From contig NZ_JACGWT010000002.1 in assembly GCF_014137855.1 (NCBI RefSeq), forward strand, positions 1 through 64,000: a stretch of DNA of 64,000 bases, read 5' to 3'. Shown one piece after another: positions 17,121-28,091 of the stretch. Made by a program: the position numbers and the translations under genes. Origin of the DNA: Microlunatus kandeliicorticis. GTDB lineage: Bacteria; Actinomycetota; Actinomycetes; Propionibacteriales; Propionibacteriaceae. The notes under the pieces were generated by a model. That model saw nothing but the letters and a program-made list of their open reading frames with translations. It ran no database searches and was not told where the DNA came from. The number at the start of each line of letters is the position of its first letter. The stretch's first letter is position 1.

Positions 17121-18053
17121 GTGAGTCCCACGACGAAGCGCCGTCCGGTCCCCCCACCCACGAGCGCGGCGGCCCGATCGGCGAAGACCGCGACCGGGAG
17201 CAAGGGCCCGGCCGGCTCCGCGCGGGCGCGGTTGGCCGCCCAGCAGGCCGAGGCCGAGCGCCGCCGCCGACGGCTCACCCTGGTGATCGTCCCGCTGGCC
17301 GTGGTGCTGGTCGCGGTGGCGACGCTGATCGTGGTCCGGCTGACCAGCAACGGCAGCGGCGACCAGAGCGTCGGGGGCGCCGACGTCATCGGCAAGGTGA
17401 CCTCGGTCCCGGCCTCGACGCTGGACCAGGTCGGCGCGGGTGTGGTCACCGCCGCGCCGCGGTCGCTCAACGCGCCGGCGCTGACCGCCGACGGGAAGCC
17501 CAAGGTGCTCTACGTCGGCGCCGAGTACTGCCCCTACTGCGCGGCCGAGCGGTGGGCGATGGTGGTGGCGCTGTCGCGGTTCGGCACCTTCAGCAACCTC
17601 GGTCAGACCCGGTCGTCCTCGACCGACATCTACCCGAGCACGGCGACGCTGACCTTCCACGGCGCGAGCTACCGCAGCGACGTGATCTCGTTCACCGGCA
17701 CCGAGATCGAGGACGGCGAGGGCAAACCGCTCGACAACCTCACCGCCGAGGACCAGAAGCTCTTCGACACCTACGACGCGCCGCCCTACACCAGCAGCGC
17801 CGGCGGCATCCCGTTCGTCGACATCGGCGGCAAGTACGCGGTCTACTCGGCCACCTACGACCCGCAGATCCTGCAGGGCAAGACCCACCAGCAGATCGCC
17901 GACGCACTGGCCGATCCGAGCTCGCCGATCGCCAAGTCCGTCGACGGGGCCGCCAACGCGATCACCGCCGCGATCTGCGCCACCACCGGCAACAAGCCCA
18001 CCGCCGTCTGCACCTCGTCCGGCGTGCAGGCCGCCGCGAAGACGCTGCAGTGA
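17121..18053 (+). CDS. DUF929 thioredoxin-like membrane-anchored protein
   Basis: 310 residues, GTG start. A basic N-terminus and one transmembrane helix (about residues 48-72, [21 protein letters not shown]) anchor a thioredoxin-fold domain outside the cell. The redox centre is C137-P-Y-C140 in [15 protein letters not shown], and [12 protein letters not shown] supplies the cis-proline loop. Two further cysteines near the C-terminus (AAICATTG and AVCTSSG) may form a structural disulfide. VKOR follows with a 4-nt overlap, so this protein is probably its DsbA-like partner that oxidises secreted proteins. The start is chosen where the basic n-region begins. Confidence 0.88.
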
Positions 18054-18538
18054 GCACCCGGACGAGCGCGACCACCGGAGCCGCGGTCGCGCGCGACGGG
18101 TCGGCGGCCCGCCGTTGGCTCACGGCGCCGTTCCTGCTCTCGGTGGTCGGCCTGGCCATCTCGGTCTACCTGACCGTCGAGCACTTCACCACGCCGGCGA
18201 TCCTGGCCTGCCCCGAGGGCGCCACGGTCAACTGCGCCAAGGTGACGTCGAGCCCCTACGCGACGCTGTTCGGCGTCCCGGTCGCGGTGCTCGGGCTGGT
18301 CTTCTTCGTGGCCATGACCGCGCTCACCGTCCCCGCCGCCTGGCGGGTGCCGGCGCTCACCTGGGTCCGGGTCGGTGCCTGCGCCGTCGGCGTGGTGATG
18401 GTGCTCTATCTGGTCTGGGTCGAACTCTTCCGGGTCAACGCGATCTGCCTGTGGTGCACCGGGGTGCACGTGGTGACCGTCGCCCTGCTGGTCGCGGTGC
18501 TGTGGCGGATGACCAGCCGCCCCGTCGACCAGGACTGA
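18050..18538 (+). CDS. Vitamin K epoxide reductase family protein (VKOR)
   Basis: 162 residues, GTG overlapping the DUF929 stop (GTGA). Four or five transmembrane helices. The four catalytic cysteines are present: C54 and C62 ([12 protein letters not shown]) as the shuttle pair, and C133-L-W-C136 as the quinone-facing active site. Bacterial VKOR reoxidises a DsbA-like thioredoxin by passing electrons to menaquinone. With the CPYC protein encoded just upstream, this forms a complete two-gene disulfide-forming module. Confidence 0.93.
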
Positions 18539-18559: not shown

Positions 18560-19471
18560 TCAGTCGAGCACCCGCGCGTACGCCGGCGTGTCCAGCGCCG
18601 CCTCGAGGCGCGGCTGGTCCTCGCGCCAGGCCTGCAGCACCAGGTGCACGGTCCAGCCGACCGTCCAGGCCACACACCGGTCCACCGACAGCCCGAGCCG
18701 CCGGCCGAGGTCCGCGGCGACGTCGAGCGCACAGCCGGCCGACTGGTCGTGCGCGACCATCCCGACGTCCGCGCACGGGTCCCCGACCTGCGGCATCGGG
18801 TCGATCAGCCGCCAGCCGAACGGACCCCCGGCGTCCGCGAGGACGTTCTTGACCAGCGGGTCACCGTGCAGCAGCACCGGGGTGACGTCGTCGGCCGCCA
18901 GCCCGTGGAGCAGCCGGCGGGCGTCCGGCAACCGGCGCAGGCCCACGGCCGCGCGGCCGGGTTCGCGATGGGTCCGGCGCTCGTGGCTGAGGTCGGCCAG
19001 CGCGACCCGCTCGAGCCGCGGGAGCACCGCGGCCGGCGTCGGGAACCGTCGGCCATCGGGCACACCGCAGCCGTGCAGCCGGCCGAGCAACCCGGCCACC
19101 ACCGCGACCGGCTCCGGGTCGTACGCGCCCGCGCTCGGGTCGACCGTCCGGCCCTCGTCGTGCGGGTCGCCGGCGGCGAGGGGCGCGCAGCGTGGCAGCG
19201 GGGTGCCCGGGCGCAACCGACGCGACAACAGCGCCGCGGAGACCGGGTCGCCCGCGACCGGTTCGAGCGCGGCACCGGTCCCGGCCCAGACCTCGAGCGC
19301 GGACGCCTCCCGCCGGTACTCCTCCGGGCTGGCCAGCAGCTTGAGCACGAGCTCGGCACCGTCGGTGCCGGTGGCCGCGAAGACGTCCGCCCGGAAGCCG
19401 CCGGACAGCCGGTCACCGACGCGCAGCGACCAGAGCGTGCGGCAGCGGTCGATCCGGGCGGTCAGGTCCAC
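18560..19471 (-). CDS. APH(6)/hydroxyurea phosphotransferase family kinase
   Basis: 303 residues. It resembles streptomycin 6-kinase family members: LWSLRVGDRLSGGFRADVF (nucleotide loop region), AELVLKLLASPEEYRREASAL, the catalytic loop VLLHGDPLVKNVLAD and the metal site WRLIDPMPQVGDPCADVGM. These enzymes phosphorylate aminoglycosides or hydroxyurea, but chromosomal copies often have unknown substrates. Its start lies inside the end of cydC, a 59-nt same-strand overlap. The conserved LWSLRVG block is encoded within or next to the overlap, so trimming the start would remove conserved residues. Confidence 0.85.
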   Translation of the reverse strand: MDLTARIDRCRTLWSLRVGDRLSGGFRADVFAATGTDGAELVLKLLASPEEYRREASALEVWAGTGAALEPVAGDPVSAALLSRRLRPGTPLPRCAPLAAGDPHDEGRTVDPSAGAYDPEPVAVVAGLLGRLHGCGVPDGRRFPTPAAVLPRLERVALADLSHERRTHREPGRAAVGLRRLPDARRLLHGLAADDVTPVLLHGDPLVKNVLADAGGPFGWRLIDPMPQVGDPCADVGMVAHDQSAGCALDVAADLGRRLGLSVDRCVAWTVGWTVHLVLQAWREDQPRLEAALDTPAYARVLD

Positions 19472-21122: not shown

Positions 21123-22834
21123 CGGTCGGTCCTGACCACGCGGTCGGCCGCGGCCAGCAGCGCCGGACGGTGGCTGACCACCAGGGCCGCGGCGCCGAGC
21201 GCACGGACCCGGGCGAGCACGGCCTGCTCGCGGGCCGGGTCGAGCCCGGCGGTCGGCTCGTCCATGATCACCAGCTGGGCGCCGGCCGCCTCCACCTGCA
21301 GCAACGCGCGGGCCACCGCGACCCTCCGGCGCTGCCCGGTCGAGAGCCCCTCGCCGCCGGGCAGCACCGGCGAGTCGGGGTGGAGGTCGTCGACCCCCGC
21401 CCCGGCCAGCGCGCTGTGGATGGACGCGTCCGAGGCCGTCGGGACCGCCAGCCGGAGCTGGTCGGCCACCGTGCCGGCCAGCAGGGTCGGCGCCTGCGGC
21501 ACCCAGGCGATCGCGCGACGCCAGCGCTCGGGATCGCGGAGCGGCTGCACCGTCCGCCCGCCCTGCCGGACCAGCACCCGGCCGCGGTCCGGACGCTGGA
21601 GCCCCAGCAGCACCGCGAGCGCGGTGCTCTTCCCCGAGCCGCTGGGCCCGGCCAGCGCGACCAGTTCCCCCGGGCCGACCCGGAGACTGAGTGGCGCGAG
21701 CCGGCCGTCGACCGCGACCCCGTCCAGCGTCAGGGCGTCGACCTGCAGCCGCGGATCGAACGCCTCCTCGGAGCTCGGAACGGCCTGAGCGGTCGGAGAG
21801 GGCAGAGCGGTCGGAGAGGGCAGGGCCGGCGCCTCGGCGATCCGGGCGAACGCGGTCTCGGCGGCGGCCGCCCCGTCGGCCGACTCGTGGAAGTGGGTGC
21901 CGACCTGGCGCAGCGGCAGGAAGGCCTCGGGCGCGAGCAGCAGCACGAAGAGCGCCGTGCCGAGGTCGAGGTGGCCGCCGACCAGCCGCAGCCCGACGGT
22001 GACCGCCACCACCGCCACCGACAGGGTGGCCAGCAGCTCGAGCACCAGCGCGGAGAGGAAGGTGGTGCGGAGCACGGTCATCGTCTCGGACGCGTGCGCG
22101 GTCTCGGTCCGCCGCAAGCCCTCGACCTGCGCGCGGGCCCGGCCGAACACCTGAAGCGTGGGCAGCCCGTCGACGAGGTCGGCGAAGTGGTGGGCCAACC
22201 GGGACTGGACCCGCTGGCGCCGGGCGACCTCGTCGCGGGTGTGCCAGCCGACCAGCACCATGAACACCGGGATCAACGGCAGGGTGAGCGCGAGGATCAG
22301 CGCCGAGAGCGGGTCGGCCGACAGCACCGCGACCCCGACCACCAGCGGCACCACCACGGCGAGCACCAGGGCCGGCAGGTACCGGCCGAAGTAGCCGTCG
22401 AGCCCGTCGAGACCCTCGGTGACCAGGTCGGCCAGCCGGCCGCCGTCGGCGCCGGCGTCGCCCTGCCGGACCCGCGCGGCCAGCAGCTCGGACCGGAGAT
22501 CGGCCTTGACCCGGGTCGCCGCCCCGGCCGCGAGCAGCGGGGTGAGCGCGGCGAGCACCGCCCGCACGGCGAGGACCACGACCACCGGCGGCAGCACGTC
22601 CAGCGCCGCGTCCCACCCGCCGGCGGGAGCGGCGACCAGCCGGGTGACCGCGCGGCTGAGGAACCAGGCCTGCGCCACCACGACCAGCGCGGTGAGCGAG
22701 CCGACGGCCACCAGCCCGGCCAGCCGCAGCCGGGCCGGCCGGCTCCGCGACCACAGCCGCGGGTCGACCGGACCGCGCCGACGGGCCGGCGTCCTCCCGG
22801 TGCCGGGGGCGGCGGTCGGGGCGAGGGCGGCCAT
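21119..22834 (-). CDS. cydD: Glutathione/cysteine ABC exporter subunit CydD
   Basis: 571 residues, ATG overlapping the cydB stop by one base (TGATG). Membrane domain (residues ~30-320), then ATPase with GPSGSGKSTALAVLL, Q-loop WVPQAPTLLAG, signature LSTGQRRRVAVARAL and VIMDEPTAGLDPA. The signature has T for the usual second G (LSTGQ), and CydC shows its own variant (VSGGEA), so both sites can be judged functional but unequal. A linker carries the repeat ALPSPTALPSPT. With CydC it supplies reductant outside the membrane for bd oxidase maturation. Confidence 0.93.
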   Translation of the reverse strand: MAALAPTAAPGTGRTPARRRGPVDPRLWSRSRPARLRLAGLVAVGSLTALVVVAQAWFLSRAVTRLVAAPAGGWDAALDVLPPVVVVLAVRAVLAALTPLLAAGAATRVKADLRSELLAARVRQGDAGADGGRLADLVTEGLDGLDGYFGRYLPALVLAVVVPLVVGVAVLSADPLSALILALTLPLIPVFMVLVGWHTRDEVARRQRVQSRLAHHFADLVDGLPTLQVFGRARAQVEGLRRTETAHASETMTVLRTTFLSALVLELLATLSVAVVAVTVGLRLVGGHLDLGTALFVLLLAPEAFLPLRQVGTHFHESADGAAAAETAFARIAEAPALPSPTALPSPTAQAVPSSEEAFDPRLQVDALTLDGVAVDGRLAPLSLRVGPGELVALAGPSGSGKSTALAVLLGLQRPDRGRVLVRQGGRTVQPLRDPERWRRAIAWVPQAPTLLAGTVADQLRLAVPTASDASIHSALAGAGVDDLHPDSPVLPGGEGLSTGQRRRVAVARALLQVEAAGAQLVIMDEPTAGLDPAREQAVLARVRALGAAALVVSHRPALLAAADRVVRTDR

Positions 22835-23877
22835 CAGTGGTCCACCGGGATCGCCGTGACCCGCAGCCGGCGCCGGAACACCCAGTAGCTCCAGGCCTGG
22901 TAGGCCAGCACGAACGGGGTGGCCACGGCCGCGGCCCAGGTCATGATCGTCAACGTGTAGTCGGTGGACGAGGCGTTGGTCACGGTCAGGCTCCACGCCG
23001 GGTCGAGGGTGCTCGGCAGCACCGCCGGGAACAGCCCGACGAACCAGGCGGCCACCATCGCCCCGACCGTCACCGCGGTGCCGACGAAGGCCCACCCCTC
23101 GCGGCCCCGCCGGTTCGCCAGCAGCGCGCCGGCGAGGGCGAGCACCGCGACCAGGCTGAGCACCAGCGCGGCGAGCAGGCCCGGCGCCGTCCGCCCCTCG
23201 GCGGTCGCCGAGGCGCCACCGGCCCGCAGGGCGACCAGCGAGCCGAGCGTCCCGGCCACCAGCAGCACGACCACCGGGCCGAACCGCCGCGCCAGCCGGG
23301 CGGCCCGGACGCGGACCTCGCCGTCGGTCTTGAGCGCGACGAAGACCGCCCCGTGCAGCACGCAGAGCGCGAACACCGCGAGCCCGCTGAGCAACGGGAA
23401 CGGCCGCAGCAGCGCGCCCGGCGACCCGACCAGCTCGCCGCGGGCGTCGACCGGGACCCCGGCGACGACGTTGCCGAAGGCGATCCCCCAGAGCAGCGCG
23501 GCGGCCGCGGAGCTGACGGTGATCGCGACGTCCCACCGACGCCGCCAGGCCGCCTCGGGCCGCTTGCTGCGGTAGTCGATGCCGACCAGCCGGACGATCA
23601 GCGCGACCAGGATGGCCAGCATCAGCAGGTAGAAGCCGCTGAAGACGGTGGCGTACCAGTCGGGGAAGGCGGCGAACATCGCCCCGGCGGCGACGATCAC
23701 CCACACCTCGTTGGCGTCGAAGTGCGGGCCGATGGTGTTGATCACCTGCCGGCGCTCGCGGTCGTCACGGCCGAGCACGCCGACCAGCGTGCCGACCCCG
23801 AAGTCGAAGCCCTCGAGGACGAAGTACCCGGTCCACAGGAACGCGATCAACGCGAACCAGACGGTGTGGAGCTCCAT
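22834..23877 (-). CDS. cydB: Cytochrome bd ubiquinol/menaquinol oxidase subunit II
   Basis: 347 residues, about nine transmembrane helices. The family N-terminus is clear (ELHTVWFALIAFLWTGYFVLEGFDFGVGTL), as is the NEVWVIVAAGAMFAAFPDWYATVFSGFYL block. It forms the second half of the bd oxidase with CydA. It lies 24 nt downstream of cydA and one base over cydD, so all four cyd genes form one transcript. Confidence 0.96.
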   Translation of the reverse strand: MELHTVWFALIAFLWTGYFVLEGFDFGVGTLVGVLGRDDRERRQVINTIGPHFDANEVWVIVAAGAMFAAFPDWYATVFSGFYLLMLAILVALIVRLVGIDYRSKRPEAAWRRRWDVAITVSSAAAALLWGIAFGNVVAGVPVDARGELVGSPGALLRPFPLLSGLAVFALCVLHGAVFVALKTDGEVRVRAARLARRFGPVVVLLVAGTLGSLVALRAGGASATAEGRTAPGLLAALVLSLVAVLALAGALLANRRGREGWAFVGTAVTVGAMVAAWFVGLFPAVLPSTLDPAWSLTVTNASSTDYTLTIMTWAAAVATPFVLAYQAWSYWVFRRRLRVTAIPVDH

Positions 23878-23901: not shown

Positions 23902-25410
23902 TCAGTAGGCGAACTCGAGCGGACGGTCGGTCACGTCGACCGCCCTGGACGCGCCCCCGGCGGCGTCGTCCCCGGCGTTCCCGCCGCCGGCCTGCTCGTC
24001 GGTCACCGCGGCCGGCAGCCCGGCCCGGATGTAGCGGAGCAGCAGCCGCACCTCGACCACCGCGAGGACGCCGTAGAGCAGCGTGAACACCCCGAGCGAG
24101 ATCAGCACCTCGGCCACCCTGGTGCTCGGCGAGACGCCGTCGGCGGTCTTGAGCAGCCCGAAGACCAGCCAGGGCTGCCGCCCCGTCTCGGTGAAGATCC
24201 AGCCGATCGAGTTGGCGAACAGCGGCAGCAGCGGCAGCGCGACCAGCAGCGGGCGCCACCAGCGGCTGACGATCGGGCGACCGGTGGCCGCCCGCGACCG
24301 GCGGACCGACCACAGCAGCAGGGCACCGACGGCCATCCCGGCCACCCCGAGCGCGATCATCCAGCGGAAGGTCCAGTAGGTCAGCGGGATGTACGGCGCG
24401 TACTCCCCCGGGCCGTAGGCGGCGGCGTACTGGGCCTGCAGGTCGTTGATCCCCGACACCCGGCCGTCGAAGGTGCCGGTGGCCAGGAAGGAGAGCAGCC
24501 GCGGCACGGTGATCGCCCACAGCTCGTGCCGTCCGTCGGGAGTGCCGATGGTCAGCACCGAGAACGACGCCGGCTGTTCGGTGCGGTAGAGCGCCTCGGC
24601 GGCGGCCATCTTCATCGGCTGCACCCGGGTCATCACCTTGCCCTGCAGGTCACCGGAGACGAGCACGCCGAGCCCGGCGACCAGCAGCGTGGTGGCGCCG
24701 ACCCGCACCGAGGTCAGCCAGGCGGCGACGTCGCGGCCCGGGCCCTCGGCGGGCGTCGTGCCGCGGGCCGCGCGGAGCAGGTGCCAGCCGCCGACCGCGG
24801 CGAGGAACGCACCGCCGACCATGAAGCAGCCGAAGATCTGGTGCGGGAAGGTGACCAGCACCACCGGGTTGGTGAACACCGCGCCGATGTCGGTGAGCTC
24901 GGCCCGGCCGCTGACCGGGTCGATCCGGTAGCCGACCGGGTGCTGCATGAACGAGTTGGCGGCCAGGATGAAGTAGGCGCTGAGCACGGTGCCGATCGCC
25001 GCGGCCCAGATGGTGGCCAGGTGCAGCCGCTTCGGCAGCCGACCCCAGCCGAACACCCACAGCCCGAGGAAGGTCGACTCGAGGAAGAAGGCCAGCAGCC
25101 CCTCGAGCGCGAGCGGGGCGCCGAAGACGTCACCGACGAACCGGGAGTAGGCGCTCCAGTTCATCCCGAACTGGAACTCCTGGACGATGCCGGTCACCAC
25201 GCCGAGGGCGAAGTTGATCAGGAACAGCTTGCCGAAGAACTTGGTCAACCGGAGGAAGCGGTCCGACCCGGTCCGCACCCAGGCGGTCTGCAGCCCGGCG
25301 ACCAGTCCGGCCAGACCGATGGTCATCGGGACGAAGAAGAAGTGGTAGACGGTGGTGATGGCGAACTGCCACCGCGACAGCGTGACCGGGTTCAGGAATT
25401 CCGGGCCCAT
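23902..25410 (-). CDS. cydA: Cytochrome bd oxidase subunit I
   Basis: 502 residues from ATG 25410, preceded by GGAGGAG; a frame reaching 25503 is rejected because it would cross the promoter. Subunit I carries hemes b558, b595 and d: the N-terminal SRWQFAITTVYHFFFVPMTIG holds one heme histidine and the signature GRQPWLVFGLLKT is present near residue 400. The quinol (Q) loop is the short version expected in actinobacteria. The enzyme reduces oxygen with high affinity without pumping protons. First gene of cydABDC; the promoter carries two dyads facing blaI. Confidence 0.97.
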   Translation of the reverse strand: MGPEFLNPVTLSRWQFAITTVYHFFFVPMTIGLAGLVAGLQTAWVRTGSDRFLRLTKFFGKLFLINFALGVVTGIVQEFQFGMNWSAYSRFVGDVFGAPLALEGLLAFFLESTFLGLWVFGWGRLPKRLHLATIWAAAIGTVLSAYFILAANSFMQHPVGYRIDPVSGRAELTDIGAVFTNPVVLVTFPHQIFGCFMVGGAFLAAVGGWHLLRAARGTTPAEGPGRDVAAWLTSVRVGATTLLVAGLGVLVSGDLQGKVMTRVQPMKMAAAEALYRTEQPASFSVLTIGTPDGRHELWAITVPRLLSFLATGTFDGRVSGINDLQAQYAAAYGPGEYAPYIPLTYWTFRWMIALGVAGMAVGALLLWSVRRSRAATGRPIVSRWWRPLLVALPLLPLFANSIGWIFTETGRQPWLVFGLLKTADGVSPSTRVAEVLISLGVFTLLYGVLAVVEVRLLLRYIRAGLPAAVTDEQAGGGNAGDDAAGGASRAVDVTDRPLEFAY

Positions 25411-25430
25411 CTCGAGCTCCTCCGCTTGAC

Positions 25431-25476
25431 TACTACAGAGCCTAGTACGTGCGCATCCGTACGTCTCTGTGTAGTA
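25431..25476. promoter_or_regulatory. BlaI-type operator pair in the cydA-blaI divergent promoter
   Basis: Two 17-bp dyads: TACTA-N7-TAGTA at 25431-25447 and TACGT-N7-TAGTA at 25460-25476, 29 bp apart. The left dyad overlaps a possible cydA -10 (minus-strand TAGGCT, 25439-25444). BlaI/MecI/CopY repressors bind dyads containing TACTA/TAGTA or TACA/TGTA half-sites, and a BlaI gene starts 44 bp away. Confidence 0.7.
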
Positions 25477-25507
25477 CGTCACCTCGCGTAGTCGCCGGTC
25501 CACCGCC

Positions 25508-25513
25508 TAGGCT
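25508..25513 (+). promoter_or_regulatory. -10 element, leaderless blaI-type gene
   Basis: TAGGCT, then GGACGC, then GTG 25520. Confidence 0.6.
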
Positions 25514-25519
25514 GGACGC

Positions 25520-25894
25520 GTGAACGCGCTCGGAGACCTCGAACGGCAGGTGATGGACCGGCTGTGGGCCGACCCGGCGCCGCAGTCCGTCCGCGAGGTC
25601 CACCAGGCGCTCAGCCGGGACCGCGAGCTCGCCTACACCACGGTGATGACCGTGCTCGACCGGCTGGCCAAGAAGGGGCTGGTCCGCCGCGAGCGGGACG
25701 GCCGCGCCTACCGCTACCAGGCCGGACAGACCCGCGACGAGCTGGTCGCCGAGCTGATGCACAGCACGCTGGCCGACGAGCTCTCCGACCGCGAGGACGA
25801 CCGGACGGCCGCACTGGTGGCCTTCGTCGGCCGCGTGAGCCCGGACGAGGCGGCCGCCATGCGCGCCGCCCTGGACCGGCTCGAGGGACGATGA
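25520..25894 (+). CDS. BlaI/MecI/CopY family repressor
   Basis: 124 residues, GTG start. Winged helix domain at residues 1-75 (LGDLERQVMDRLW..SVREVHQAL..AYTTVMTVLDRLAKKGLVRRERDGRAYRYQ), then a dimerisation helix region. Members repress beta-lactamase, copper or respiratory genes and are inactivated by proteolysis from an M56 membrane protease. Such a protease is encoded 70 nt downstream. BlaI cleavage normally falls between helix and dimer domain; the matching stretch (YQAGQTRDELVAELMH) is present. The likely targets are its own promoter and cydABDC. Confidence 0.92.
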   Translation: MNALGDLERQVMDRLWADPAPQSVREVHQALSRDRELAYTTVMTVLDRLAKKGLVRRERDGRAYRYQAGQTRDELVAELMHSTLADELSDREDDRTAALVAFVGRVSPDEAAAMRAALDRLEGR

Positions 25895-25964
25895 CCCACC
25901 CGCCGGCACGCTGACCTGCCCTCGGGCGTGGTGATGACGTGGCATCGACGAGCGAGGGTGTGAC

Positions 25965-26930
25965 GTGACCCCGGCGCCGCTGCGGGACCTCCTGCTCGGC
26001 ACGGTCCCCGAGACGACGGCGCTCGCCCTCGGCCTGCTCACGCTGGTGCTGGTCGGGCCCGGTCCGCTCTGGGTCCGGCGCTGGCCCTTCCTGCCCCGGG
26101 TCCCCCGGGCCGCGGTCACCCTGTGGCAGGCGGGCACCGTCGCCTCCCTGGTCGCGGTCACGCTGGCCGGCGCCGTCGCGGTGCGGGCCGCGCTCGCCGG
26201 CGACCGACCGCGGGGGACGCTCGGGGCGGCGCTGATCGCCCTGGACACCGTGATCGCCCTCTTCGCGGTGCTGGTGCTGGCCCGGCTCGCCTGGTCGCTG
26301 GTCACCGTGGCCCGTCGCACCCGGGCACGCCGGGCCCGGCACCGGGCGGCGGTCGACCTGCTCGGCCAGGTCGACGAGCGCGCCGCGCTGCCCGGGCTCC
26401 GCGTGGTGGCCGGTTCGTTCCCGCTCGCCTACTGCCTGCCCTCGCTCCGCGCCTCGCGGGTGGTGGTGAGCTCGGCGACCCTGGCCGCGCTCGACGCCGA
26501 CGAGCTGCGCGCGGTGCTCGCCCACGAGGAGGCGCACCTGCGGGCTCGGCACGACGTCGTGCTCGACACCTTCACCGCCCTGCACCAGGCGTTCCCGCAC
26601 CTGGTCCGCAGCGAGATCCCGGCCGAGCAGTGCCGGCTGCTGGTCGAGATGCTCGCCGACGACGCGGCCGTCCGGCGGGTCGGGCGACTGCCGCTCGCCC
26701 ACGCGCTGGTCGCACTGGCCGGCGCCCCGGTCCCCCGTGAGGCCCTGGCCGCCGGGCGGCACGCGGTGGCCGAGCGGGTCGACCGGCTCGGCCGCCCGGT
26801 CACCCGGCGGACCCGAGCGCTGGCCGGTGCGCTCTACCTGCTCGCGGTCTCGCTGGTGGCCAGCGGACCGCTGGTGCTCGTCGTCGTGCCGAGCATGCTC
26901 CGCGCTGTTGCCAACATGTTGTCAATATGA
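25965..26930 (+). CDS. M56 family membrane metallopeptidase
   Basis: 321 residues, GTG start with GAGGG upstream. Membrane helices lie near residues 15-35, 50-75, 88-110 and 290-315. The zinc site is H187-E-E-A-H191 (LAHEEAHLRARHD) with a likely third ligand at E228 (LVEMLADDA). It lacks the C-terminal penicillin-binding sensor domain of BlaR1/MecR1, so its signal is not a beta-lactam bound there. It probably cleaves the neighbouring BlaI repressor to induce its targets. The stop codon lies inside the palindromic element that precedes the next gene. Confidence 0.9.
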   Translation: MTPAPLRDLLLGTVPETTALALGLLTLVLVGPGPLWVRRWPFLPRVPRAAVTLWQAGTVASLVAVTLAGAVAVRAALAGDRPRGTLGAALIALDTVIALFAVLVLARLAWSLVTVARRTRARRARHRAAVDLLGQVDERAALPGLRVVAGSFPLAYCLPSLRASRVVVSSATLAALDADELRAVLAHEEAHLRARHDVVLDTFTALHQAFPHLVRSEIPAEQCRLLVEMLADDAAVRRVGRLPLAHALVALAGAPVPREALAAGRHAVAERVDRLGRPVTRRTRALAGALYLLAVSLVASGPLVLVVVPSMLRAVANMLSI

Positions 26931-26945
26931 CAACATGTTGTCAAT
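26912..26945 (+). promoter_or_regulatory. Operator array before the PfpI-MarR operon
   Basis: The 15-mer CAACATGTTGTCAAT is repeated exactly at 26912-26926 and 26931-26945 (19-bp period). Each copy contains the palindrome CAACATGTTG, and the junction forms TTGTCA-ATA-TGACAA. It spans the M56 stop codon and the first start codons of the next gene, and is conspicuously AT-rich for this genome. This is a typical MarR-type site, and a MarR regulator is the second gene of the operon. Confidence 0.75.
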
Positions 26946-27546
26946 GAAGGCGATCCTCGCGGTCTACGACACCCTCGCCGACTGGGAGGTCGGCTACCTG
27001 AGCGTCGAGCTCCGGACCGGCCGCTTCACCGGCACCCCGGTCGAGGTGGTCACCGTGGCCGAGCACCCGGGCCCGGTCACCACGATGGGTGGATTGACCG
27101 TGACGCCGACCCTCACGCTCGAGCGGCTCGACGCCGGCCCGGACGACCTGCTGGTGCTCGCCGGTGCGGGTTTCTGGGACCGCGACCCGGCCGCGGGAAC
27201 GGTGTGGACCGCCCTGGCGGCCGACTTCCTGGCCGCCGGCCGCCCGGTGGCCGCGATCTGCGGGGCAACCGCCGGACTCGCCCGGGCCGGGCTGCTCGAC
27301 GAACGCGACCACACCAGCGCGGCCCGGGAGTACCTGGCCGCCACCGGCTACCGCGGCACCGACCGCTACCGCGACGAGCGCGCGGTGGTCGACGGCGATC
27401 TGGTCACCGCCGGCCCGCAGTCGCCCGCCCACTTCGCCGCCGTCACCCTCGGCCGCCTCGGTCTGATGAACGCCGACCGCCGCCGCGCCTACCTGGGCGT
27501 GTTCGTCGACGGCGACGCCCGGCACTACGCCGGGCTGACCGCGTGA
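26935..27546 (+). CDS. DJ-1/PfpI family protein
   Basis: 203 residues from ATG 26935 (or 200 from ATG 26944). The DJ-1/PfpI fold is evident: the strand KAILAVYDTLADWE, DDLLVLAGAGFW, and the nucleophile elbow RPVAAICGATAGLARAGLLD with its cysteine. An acidic partner residue sits in YDTLADWEVGYL. Members act as glyoxalases, deglycases, amidases or isonitrile hydratases, and the precise activity is not inferable. The following MarR gene overlaps by 4 nt. The start region lies inside the operator, so repressor binding would also block transcription start. Confidence 0.88.
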   Translation: MLSMKAILAVYDTLADWEVGYLSVELRTGRFTGTPVEVVTVAEHPGPVTTMGGLTVTPTLTLERLDAGPDDLLVLAGAGFWDRDPAAGTVWTALAADFLAAGRPVAAICGATAGLARAGLLDERDHTSAAREYLAATGYRGTDRYRDERAVVDGDLVTAGPQSPAHFAAVTLGRLGLMNADRRRAYLGVFVDGDARHYAGLTA

Positions 27547-28091
27547 GCACGCCGGGCACCCCGGGCGCCGCCGGCACGGGCGGGGTGCCCGACCGCGACC
27601 GCTGGCCGGAGCCGCCGGGGCACAGCCGAGCCGGTACCGCGGTGACCGAGCTGATCATCGCGACCTTCCGGCTCAACGGGCTTTTGCTCGAGTCGGCCCA
27701 AACGCTGGCCGCCCGCGGCGGGCTGACCGCGGCCTGGTGGCAGGTGCTCGGCGGCGTGCTCGACGAGCCGCGGACGGTCGCGGAGATCGGCCGCCGGATG
27801 GGCCTGAGCCGGCAGGCGGTCCAGCGGGTGGCCGACGTGCTGGCCGGCCGCGGACTGGCCGAGTACCGGGACAACCCGGCGCACCGGCGGGCCCGGCTAC
27901 TCGCCTGCACCGAGGCGGGCTACTGGGCGGTCCGGCAGATCACCCTGGCCCAGCACCCGTGGACCAACGCGCTGGGTGCCTCGGTCGACCTCGAGACCCT
28001 GCGCGCCGCGGTGGCCACCCTCGACCGGATGGCCGACCTGGTCGAGCAGAACCCGCCCGACTCGTCCTCGAAGCCGGACGCCGGTCAGTAG
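27543..28091 (+). CDS. MarR family transcriptional regulator
   Basis: 182 residues, GTG start overlapping the PfpI stop (GTGA). A ~35-residue Pro/Gly-rich N-terminus precedes the winged helix domain (VLGGVLDEPRTVAEIGRRMGLSRQAVQRVADVLAGRGLAEYRDNPAHRRARLLACTEAG), so it is a MarR dimer. The likely target is the CAACATGTTG array 600 bp upstream, giving autoregulation of the pair. MarR regulators usually sense phenolics, oxidants or reactive carbonyls, which fits a DJ-1 partner. Its last 7 nt overlap a convergent gene. Confidence 0.9.
   Translation: MSTPGTPGAAGTGGVPDRDRWPEPPGHSRAGTAVTELIIATFRLNGLLLESAQTLAARGGLTAAWWQVLGGVLDEPRTVAEIGRRMGLSRQAVQRVADVLAGRGLAEYRDNPAHRRARLLACTEAGYWAVRQITLAQHPWTNALGASVDLETLRAAVATLDRMADLVEQNPPDSSSKPDAGQ

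What the first reader, a model, noticed from the sequence alone, without database searches (positions are those of the whole stretch)
25411..26930. BlaI-M56 proteolytic switch placed to control cytochrome bd
A BlaI-type repressor and an M56 protease that lacks any penicillin-binding sensor domain sit divergent to cydABDC. The 109-bp gap between the two starts holds two BlaI-like TACTA/TAGTA dyads, one overlapping the likely cydA -10. This suggests an M56 protease sensing a membrane or redox signal, cleaving BlaI and inducing the bd oxidase together with the thiol exporter. Seen: gene order, HEEAH zinc site, absence of the sensor domain, dyads. Known: BlaI/BlaR1 logic. Inferred: cyd as target and the signal.
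Basis: partly seen in the sequence, partly recalled or inferred. Interest (0 to 1): 0.75.

Follow-up and report, generated by a model that had tools for sequence, protein, structure and literature searches.

The report
BlaI-protease switch guarding cytochrome bd
A repressor and its membrane protease, named after the penicillin-resistance pair of Staphylococcus, sit back to back with the genes for a backup respiratory oxidase in a soil bacterium, and the same wiring and DNA-binding site recur in many related bacteria, so the pair is probably a respiration switch rather than an antibiotic sensor.

Summary
A Microlunatus-type genome carries blaI (25520-25894) and a sensor-less M56/M48-like membrane metalloprotease (25965-26930) divergent to cydABDC, with a 109-bp gap. 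The gap holds one good operator (25431-25447, overlapping the likely cydA -10) and one weak one (25460-25476). Of 38 genomes with both genes, 29 keep the divergent pair and 8 more keep it within 6 kb. A dyad, TACKACR-N3-YGTMGTA, sits at these promoters. It stays at both where the pair is split (G038, G047) and at cydA where the pair lies elsewhere (15 of 15 Mycobacteriales-type genomes examined). It was not found at cydA in 33 genomes without a BlaI match or at 6 second cydA copies. BlaI keeps the phenylalanine at the known BlaI cleavage site; the protease keeps its zinc site and has no outside domain. The link is not wholly new: BlaI of M. tuberculosis is reported to bind the cyd promoter, and its BlaR also lacks the sensor. 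What is added: cyd looks like the conserved, perhaps ancestral target. Binding, cleavage and the signal remain untested.

The parts
25520..25894 (+). blaI, GTG start, BlaI/MecI-type winged-helix repressor, 124 aa, no cysteine
   Evidence: PF03965 E 6.8e-28; best PDB match 2g9w, E 1.4e-32
25965..26930 (+). M56/M48-like integral membrane zinc metalloprotease, 321 aa, four membrane helices, no extracytoplasmic sensor domain
   Evidence: HEEAH at 26523-26537, third ligand E228 (codon at 26646)
23902..25410 (-). cydA
   Evidence: PF01654 E 1.5e-159
22834..23877 (-). cydB
   Evidence: PF02322 E 6e-103, TIGR00203 300.3 bits
21119..22834 (-). cydD
   Evidence: TIGR02857 522.5 bits
19413..21110 (-). 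cydC (start codon not fixed; a few codons may be missing at the 5' end)
   Evidence: TIGR02868 451.7 bits
25431..25447 (.). operator dyad 1, TACTACA-GAG-CCTAGTA, overlaps the likely cydA -10
   Evidence: 1 mismatch; only site that good in the genome; dyads conserved in relatives
25460..25476 (.). operator dyad 2 (weak left arm), TACGTCT-CTG-TGTAGTA
   Evidence: 2 mismatches to TACKACRNNNYGTMGTA
25487..25493 (.). lone half-site CGTAGTC in the blaI promoter
   Evidence: read; several relatives have a GTAGTA there
25439..25444 (-). likely cydA -10 (TAGGCT), inside dyad 1
   Evidence: read; rule recalled; not found by the scan
25508..25513 (+). likely blaI -10 (TAGGCT), 6 bases before the GTG start, so probably a leaderless transcript
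   Evidence: read; similar spacing in several same-genus relatives; rule recalled; not found by the scan

Best explanation
BlaI is a dedicated repressor of cydABDC and of its own operon. A dimer binds TACTACR-N3-YGTAGTA dyads in the shared promoter region and blocks both promoters, one dyad covering the cydA -10. The partner, a four-helix membrane metalloprotease whose active site should face the cytoplasm, is switched on by a change in the membrane or respiratory state and cuts BlaI just before Phe102, so the bd oxidase, its CydDC exporter and the switch itself are induced together. Shown here: the genes, the dyads, their conservation and co-occurrence with BlaI, the intact zinc site, the missing sensor domain, the conserved cleavage-site Phe. 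Inferred: binding, repression, cleavage, the signal.
For: Divergent adjacency in 29 of 38 genomes with both genes (own included), 8 more within 6 kb. 23 of the 80 best named BlaI loci have adjacent cydA, all 23 with a dyad at one mismatch or fewer. In 26 chosen genomes 31 of 48 exact dyads lie at cydA or blaI promoters; the other 17 are about the 16 of the reversed-pattern control. Split pairs keep a dyad at each promoter (G038, G047). Unlinked: 15 of 15 Mycobacteriales-type cydA promoters examined, and G035. Absent: 0 of 33 BlaI-less genomes checked, 0 of 6 second cydA copies. In G102 the order is cydABDC-blaI-protease on one strand. Phe102 invariant in 22 of 22 BlaI rows and aligned with Phe102 of S. 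aureus BlaI, cut there by BlaR1 (PMC9834060 passages). Zinc ligands invariant in 41 of 41 aligned proteases.
Against: No binding, transcription or cleavage data. One good dyad in the window, modest against local shuffles (26 of 5000). Three of the 26 genomes, two of them same-genus relatives with the divergent pair (G006, G018), have no exact dyad at all. Of 39 genomes with a more distant BlaI, 27 had no dyad at one mismatch or fewer at cydA; 10 of these 27 have a two-mismatch variant. 16 of 57 unlinked named blaI loci have no dyad at one mismatch or fewer upstream. Sampled genomes are related and the sets overlap, so counts are not independent. In M. tuberculosis cydAB is also placed under SenX3-RegX3 (PMC5874750, PMC7924339 passages).
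Confidence: 0.72

Rival explanations
1. The pair is an envelope or beta-lactam stress switch, as in Staphylococcus, and cyd is a secondary target.
For: Homology to BlaI/BlaR1; in M. tuberculosis BlaI is reported to control blaC, and amoxicillin-clavulanate raises blaI-blaR and cydAB together (PMC5473688 passages). The own genome does hold a beta-lactamase-like gene (PF13354, 116.4 bits, G000:C4:148143).
Against: No sensor domain in the protease. The two PF13354 matches lie on other contigs (C4, C3) and none of the dyad sites with two mismatches or fewer is near them. In 26 genomes the exact dyads in excess of the control sit at cydA and blaI.
Confidence: 0.12
2. BlaI is released by a small ligand rather than by proteolysis, as argued for B. 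licheniformis BlaI and a peptidoglycan dipeptide; the protease has another role.
For: Ligand release described in PMC3305447 (passages); no cleavage shown here.
Against: A protease gene follows blaI in 79 of 80 named loci, with zinc ligands invariant in 41 of 41 aligned and an invariant P1' Phe in 22 of 22 BlaI rows. No CopY-like cysteines: the window BlaI has none and 21 of 22 rows have none.
Confidence: 0.1
3. Adjacency is incidental: BlaI controls only itself, and cyd answers to other regulators.
For: Other cyd regulators are reported in actinomycetes (SenX3-RegX3, PMC5874750 passages). Rex of Streptomyces is another candidate (PMC5355995, seen only in the listing).
Against: Dyads stay at cydA where blaI is far away and were not found where BlaI is absent.
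Confidence: 0.06

Closest known systems
M. tuberculosis BlaI/BlaR (Rv1846c/Rv1845c)
   Same: Best PDB match to the window BlaI is 2g9w (that this entry is Rv1846c is recalled). Mycobacteriales BlaI rows nest among the cyd-linked ones, with weak support. BlaR is reported to lack the sensor domain and BlaI to bind cyd and ATP synthase promoters (PMC5473688 passages).
   Different: There blaI-blaR is not next to cyd (recalled from the locus numbers; in the Mycobacteriales loci no cydA lies in the stretch held), and blaC is a reported target. In the window the pair is divergent to cydABDC.
S. aureus BlaR1/BlaI and MecR1/MecI
   Same: Repressor family (1sd4, 1okr), cleavage-site Phe, membrane zinc protease with a distant structural match (8exq, 8exp), divergent layout (recalled).
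   Different: Penicillin-binding sensor domain absent; target is an oxidase, not a beta-lactamase; operator spacer 3 bases instead of 2 (the 2 is recalled).
M48 proteases ZMPSTE24/Ste24p, HtpX
   Same: Top structural matches (4aw6, 4il3) and M48 Pfam score.
   Different: Small four-helix protein paired with a repressor; prenyl-protein processing not expected.

Membership tests
Actinomycete BlaI/BlaR (Rv1846c/Rv1845c type) | BlaI most similar to Rv1846c among BlaI proteins of known structure | tested here: met
   2g9w E 1.4e-32 against 1p6r 2.4e-4; identity of 2g9w with Rv1846c recalled
Actinomycete BlaI/BlaR (Rv1846c/Rv1845c type) | protease gene directly after blaI, without sensor domain | tested here: met
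Actinomycete BlaI/BlaR (Rv1846c/Rv1845c type) | TACKACR-N3-YGTMGTA dyads at blaI and cydA | tested here: met
   the blaI side in the window is weak; no dyad of M. tuberculosis itself was looked at
Actinomycete BlaI/BlaR (Rv1846c/Rv1845c type) | BlaI binds the cyd promoter | not testable with these tools
   needs a binding assay
BlaR1/MecR1 beta-lactam receptors | extracellular penicillin-binding sensor domain | tested here: not met
   protein ends after the fourth helix; 6 residues between helices 2 and 3
BlaR1/MecR1 beta-lactam receptors | HExxH plus third glutamate zinc site | tested here: met
   H187, E188, H191, E228 invariant in 41 rows
Peptidase M56 (PF05569) | score over the Pfam cut-off | tested here: not met
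   21.9 bits, cut-off 31; M48 39 bits, cut-off 20.3
CopY/TcrY copper repressors | C-terminal metal-binding cysteines (recalled) | tested here: not met
   no cysteine in the window BlaI; TIGR02698 46.3 bits, cut-off 121.95

The most novel reading that the evidence does not exclude
A dedicated respiratory switch across Actinomycetes: a sensor-less membrane metalloprotease reads the state of the membrane or respiratory chain directly, in the manner of mitochondrial OMA1 (comparison recalled), perhaps gated by the invariant cysteine beside its active site, and destroys BlaI to induce cytochrome bd. The mycobacterial 'beta-lactamase' BlaI/BlaR would be an offshoot of this ancestral cyd switch.
Probability: 0.35. 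Interest if true: 0.75.

Novelty: new member of a known kind. Interest (0 to 1): 0.55.

Why it matters
Cytochrome bd helps actinomycetes, mycobacteria among them, at low oxygen and under respiratory poisons. PMC5473688 (passages) calls it unknown how M. tuberculosis responds to beta-lactams when its BlaR has no sensor domain. A strain with the whole switch beside its target, and one clear operator, makes the question of what such a BlaR detects directly testable outside pathogens, and suggests that BlaI in this group is first a respiratory regulator.

Tried and rejected
Copper-type (CopY) sensing: rejected, no metal-binding cysteines. A wider regulon in the own genome: not supported; no further site with at most one mismatch, and the three-mismatch count (115 sites) is below the reversed-pattern control (363); the five sites with two mismatches (L036-L040) were not examined further. 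ATP synthase as a target in this genome was not looked at separately. The cysteine in the AYC[LIV]P motif as a mark of the cyd-linked protease: it is in all 107 distinct proteases collected but also in several less related ones, so it is only a lead. The structural match to BlaR1 is weak (Foldseek E 0.04, low TM-score). The BlaI tree has few columns and many open forks; rows labelled 'par' there include unlinked BlaI that may be orthologues (f20, f40), and some f4 rows labelled unlinked only have cydA beyond the stretch held. The f22 genomes, which I take for Streptomyces from size alone, showed no dyad at cydA in the 5 sampled. The dyad pattern was drawn up from the same relatives in which adjacent gaps were then counted; the unlinked, split and BlaI-less genomes are the fairer test.

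Group labels f1-f46 and g1 are the tool's; family and order names other than those printed are recalled or guessed, and a notebook guess that f23 is Micromonosporaceae is probably wrong (a row of f23, L067, has the same protease as Phytoactinopolyspora L166 by its length and first 30 residues). In some searches one protein (26931-27543) was scanned in a wrong frame; the right frame was scanned. A query named PfpI was also out of frame and was not used.

Full report
What is there. On the minus strand lie cydA (25410-23902), cydB, cydD and cydC (to about 19413); on the plus strand blaI (25520-25894) and a 321-residue membrane metalloprotease (25965-26930). The gap is 109 bp. Families were checked. 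The genome belongs to the tool's genus g1. G008 of that genus has a contig of 7,240,126 bases, the length of the Microlunatus parietis record, and the matched stretch is the same, so the window is from a Microlunatus-type bacterium.

The operator. The cydA-blaI gaps of relatives show repeated dyads of the form TACTACR-N3-YGTAGTA, in places with TACGAC. The window has TACTACA-GAG-CCTAGTA at 25431-25447 and a weaker copy at 25460-25476. In dinucleotide shuffles of the gap, 26 of 5000 do as well as the first. Over the 4.3-Mb genome no other site has one mismatch or fewer to TACTACRNNNYGTAGTA. TAGGCT on the minus strand at 25444-25439, the likely cydA -10, lies inside the dyad. TAGGCT at 25508-25513 stands 6 bases before the blaI GTG, so that transcript is probably leaderless. 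Both promoter rules are recalled, and the sigma-70 scan found nothing.

Conserved gene order. Of 57 genomes searched (own included), 40 have a BlaI match and 47 a CydA match at E 1e-30. Leaving out three genomes whose only CydA match is weak (G001, G015, G016), 44 have CydA and 38 have both; 29 of these are divergent with 61-205 bp between the matches, 8 more lie 1.3-6 kb apart, and 1 (G035) is unlinked. In a class-wide draw of 246 genomes at least 25 further genomes outside that set have the divergent pair, and G145 is another; the tables were cut, so this is a lower bound. Among the 80 best named BlaI loci, 23 have adjacent divergent cydA: Microlunatus, Desertihabitans, Candidatus Avipropionibacterium, Kribbella (5, and one labelled Streptomyces sp. 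SID13031 that groups with them), Aeromicrobium (2), Nocardioides (2), Actinomycetospora (2), Kineococcus (2), Kineosporia, Phytoactinopolyspora, Actinoplanes, Paractinoplanes, Candidatus Ruania and one unnamed Actinomycetes bin. All 23 carry a dyad at one mismatch or fewer. The other 57 have no cydA in the stretch held and are, by their titles, Mycobacteriales but for one labelled Bifidobacterium; 41 of them carry such a dyad upstream of blaI and 16 do not. In G145 (f39) the divergent pair has a variant dyad, TTCTACACACCGTAGAA. In G102 (f36) the order is cydA, cydB, cydD, cydC, blaI, protease on one strand.

Operator without adjacency. This is the fairer test, since the pattern came from adjacent pairs. 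In 15 of 15 f7 genomes examined, of 19 f7 genomes in the draw with BlaI, the cydA upstream stretch has the dyad, 13 exact and 2 with one mismatch; of the other four, three had no listed CydA place and one no CydA at E 1e-70. The f7 BlaI rows group with named Mycobacteriales. Two f40 genomes and G102 (f36) have it too, as do G226 (f36), G024 (6 kb apart) and G035 (unlinked). In G038 an acyltransferase gene (PF01757) lies between blaI and cydA, and in G047 there are about 2 kb between them; in each, both promoters have an exact dyad. Over 26 chosen genomes, 24 with BlaI-linked or candidate cyd control and 2 without (G204, G230), the exact pattern occurs 48 times; 31 are within 200 bases of a cydA or blaI start and 17 elsewhere, against 16 for the reversed pattern; G006, G018 and G167 have none. 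Of 153 genomes of the draw with CydA, 36 have no BlaI match at E 1e-14. For 33 of these 36 the cydA upstream stretch was read, and none has a dyad at two mismatches or fewer; the other three had no listed place. Six second cydA copies in genomes that have BlaI have none. In 39 genomes with a more distant BlaI, 12 have one mismatch or fewer, 10 have a two-mismatch variant 75-98 bases from the end of the stretch, and 17 have four or more mismatches. None of 1580 base-shuffled stretches reached one mismatch.

The protease. Forty-one sequences align with invariant H187, E188, H191, E228 and D232, the gluzincin zinc site. The AlphaFold2 model is confident (mean pLDDT 90.5, pTM 0.86): helices 14-30, 47-78, 85-133, a protease domain 145-275, and a last helix 281-319, with six residues between helices 2 and 3 and nothing after the last helix. 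There is thus no place for a penicillin-binding domain. Foldseek's nine best matches are ZMPSTE24/Ste24p and S. aureus BlaR1 (probability 0.97-1.00, but E 0.007 to 0.07 and low TM-scores). All 119 protease reading frames collected, 107 of them distinct, have a cysteine in an AYC motif before the zinc site; less related ones vary, some with and some without it.

BlaI. Its best solved match is 2g9w, which I recall as Rv1846c. With the alignment as query, S. aureus BlaI and MecI are found, and residue F102 of the window protein lies opposite Phe102 of S. aureus BlaI, the P1' residue at which BlaR1 cuts (PMC9834060 passages). It is invariant in 22 of 22 rows. In the BlaI tree the Mycobacteriales rows form one group (100/99) nested among cyd-linked rows, as if linkage had been lost once there; support for the nesting is weak (91/64 and 85/79).

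Mechanism. Most likely BlaI represses cydABDC and itself, and the protease relieves this by cutting BlaI when the membrane or respiratory chain is disturbed. Binding, repression, cleavage and signal are inferred. In M. tuberculosis drugs that inhibit respiration raise cydAB (PMC5874750 passages), and amoxicillin-clavulanate raises blaI-blaR and cydAB while some ATP synthase genes fall (PMC5473688 passages); the last does not fit a simple release of BlaI from the ATP synthase operon. A beta-lactam role is not favoured: the own genome has two PF13354 matches, one strong, on other contigs, and none of the six dyad sites with two mismatches or fewer is near them.

What is known. PMC5473688 states, citing Sala et al. 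2009, that BlaI of M. [quoted passage not shown] The 2009 paper is not held, so I did not see it. PMC12565901 (passages) reports BlaI binding upstream of Rv1303, next to the ATP synthase genes. In PMC8265638 the terms cyd, cytochrome and motif were not found. PMC11561320 (passages) lists blaI among regulators raised in a katG mutant. Searches for BlaI with cytochrome bd, cydA, cydABDC, cydAB or regulon showed only the top 3-20 papers each, and none of those, by title and abstract start, describes the divergent cyd arrangement or the operator across actinomycetes; most subscription papers are not held. So I file the system as a new member of a known kind, and the new part is the evidence that cyd is its conserved target.

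Noticed in passing
26907-26949: A perfect 16-bp palindrome TGACAACATGTTGTCA (26928-26943) and a second partial copy (from 26910) overlap the end of the protease gene and lie just before a DJ-1/PfpI-family gene (26944-27546), which is followed by a MarR-family gene (about 27543-28091); it looks like a MarR operator.
   Followed up: partly
G000:C1:535094-536310 (L002, L004): A second BlaI and M56-like pair in the same genome, BlaI 45% identical, no CydA match in the 3.3 kb held; its protease has valine where the cyd-linked ones have the motif cysteine.
   Followed up: partly
L018-L021, L023, L024 (f4 genomes): An acyltransferase gene between blaI and cydA (identified in L020 only; six f4 genomes have a similar gap of 1.3-1.5 kb), with an operator kept at each promoter in G038.
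   Followed up: partly
17552-18538 and 18560-19471: Beside cydC lie an open frame with a VKOR-like stretch (89 bits, below the model's cut-off of 120) and an APH-type phosphotransferase gene (PF01636).
   Followed up: no
L078-L092: The cydA promoters of f7 genomes carry a nearly fixed dyad, in most of them TACTACACTNYGTCGTA-like; in the four f7 genomes with exact sites placed it lies 28-47 bases before the CydA match.
   Followed up: yes
G000:C4:148143-148796 (L321): A beta-lactamase-like (PF13354) stretch in a 661-residue frame of the own genome, unlinked to either blaI.
   Followed up: no
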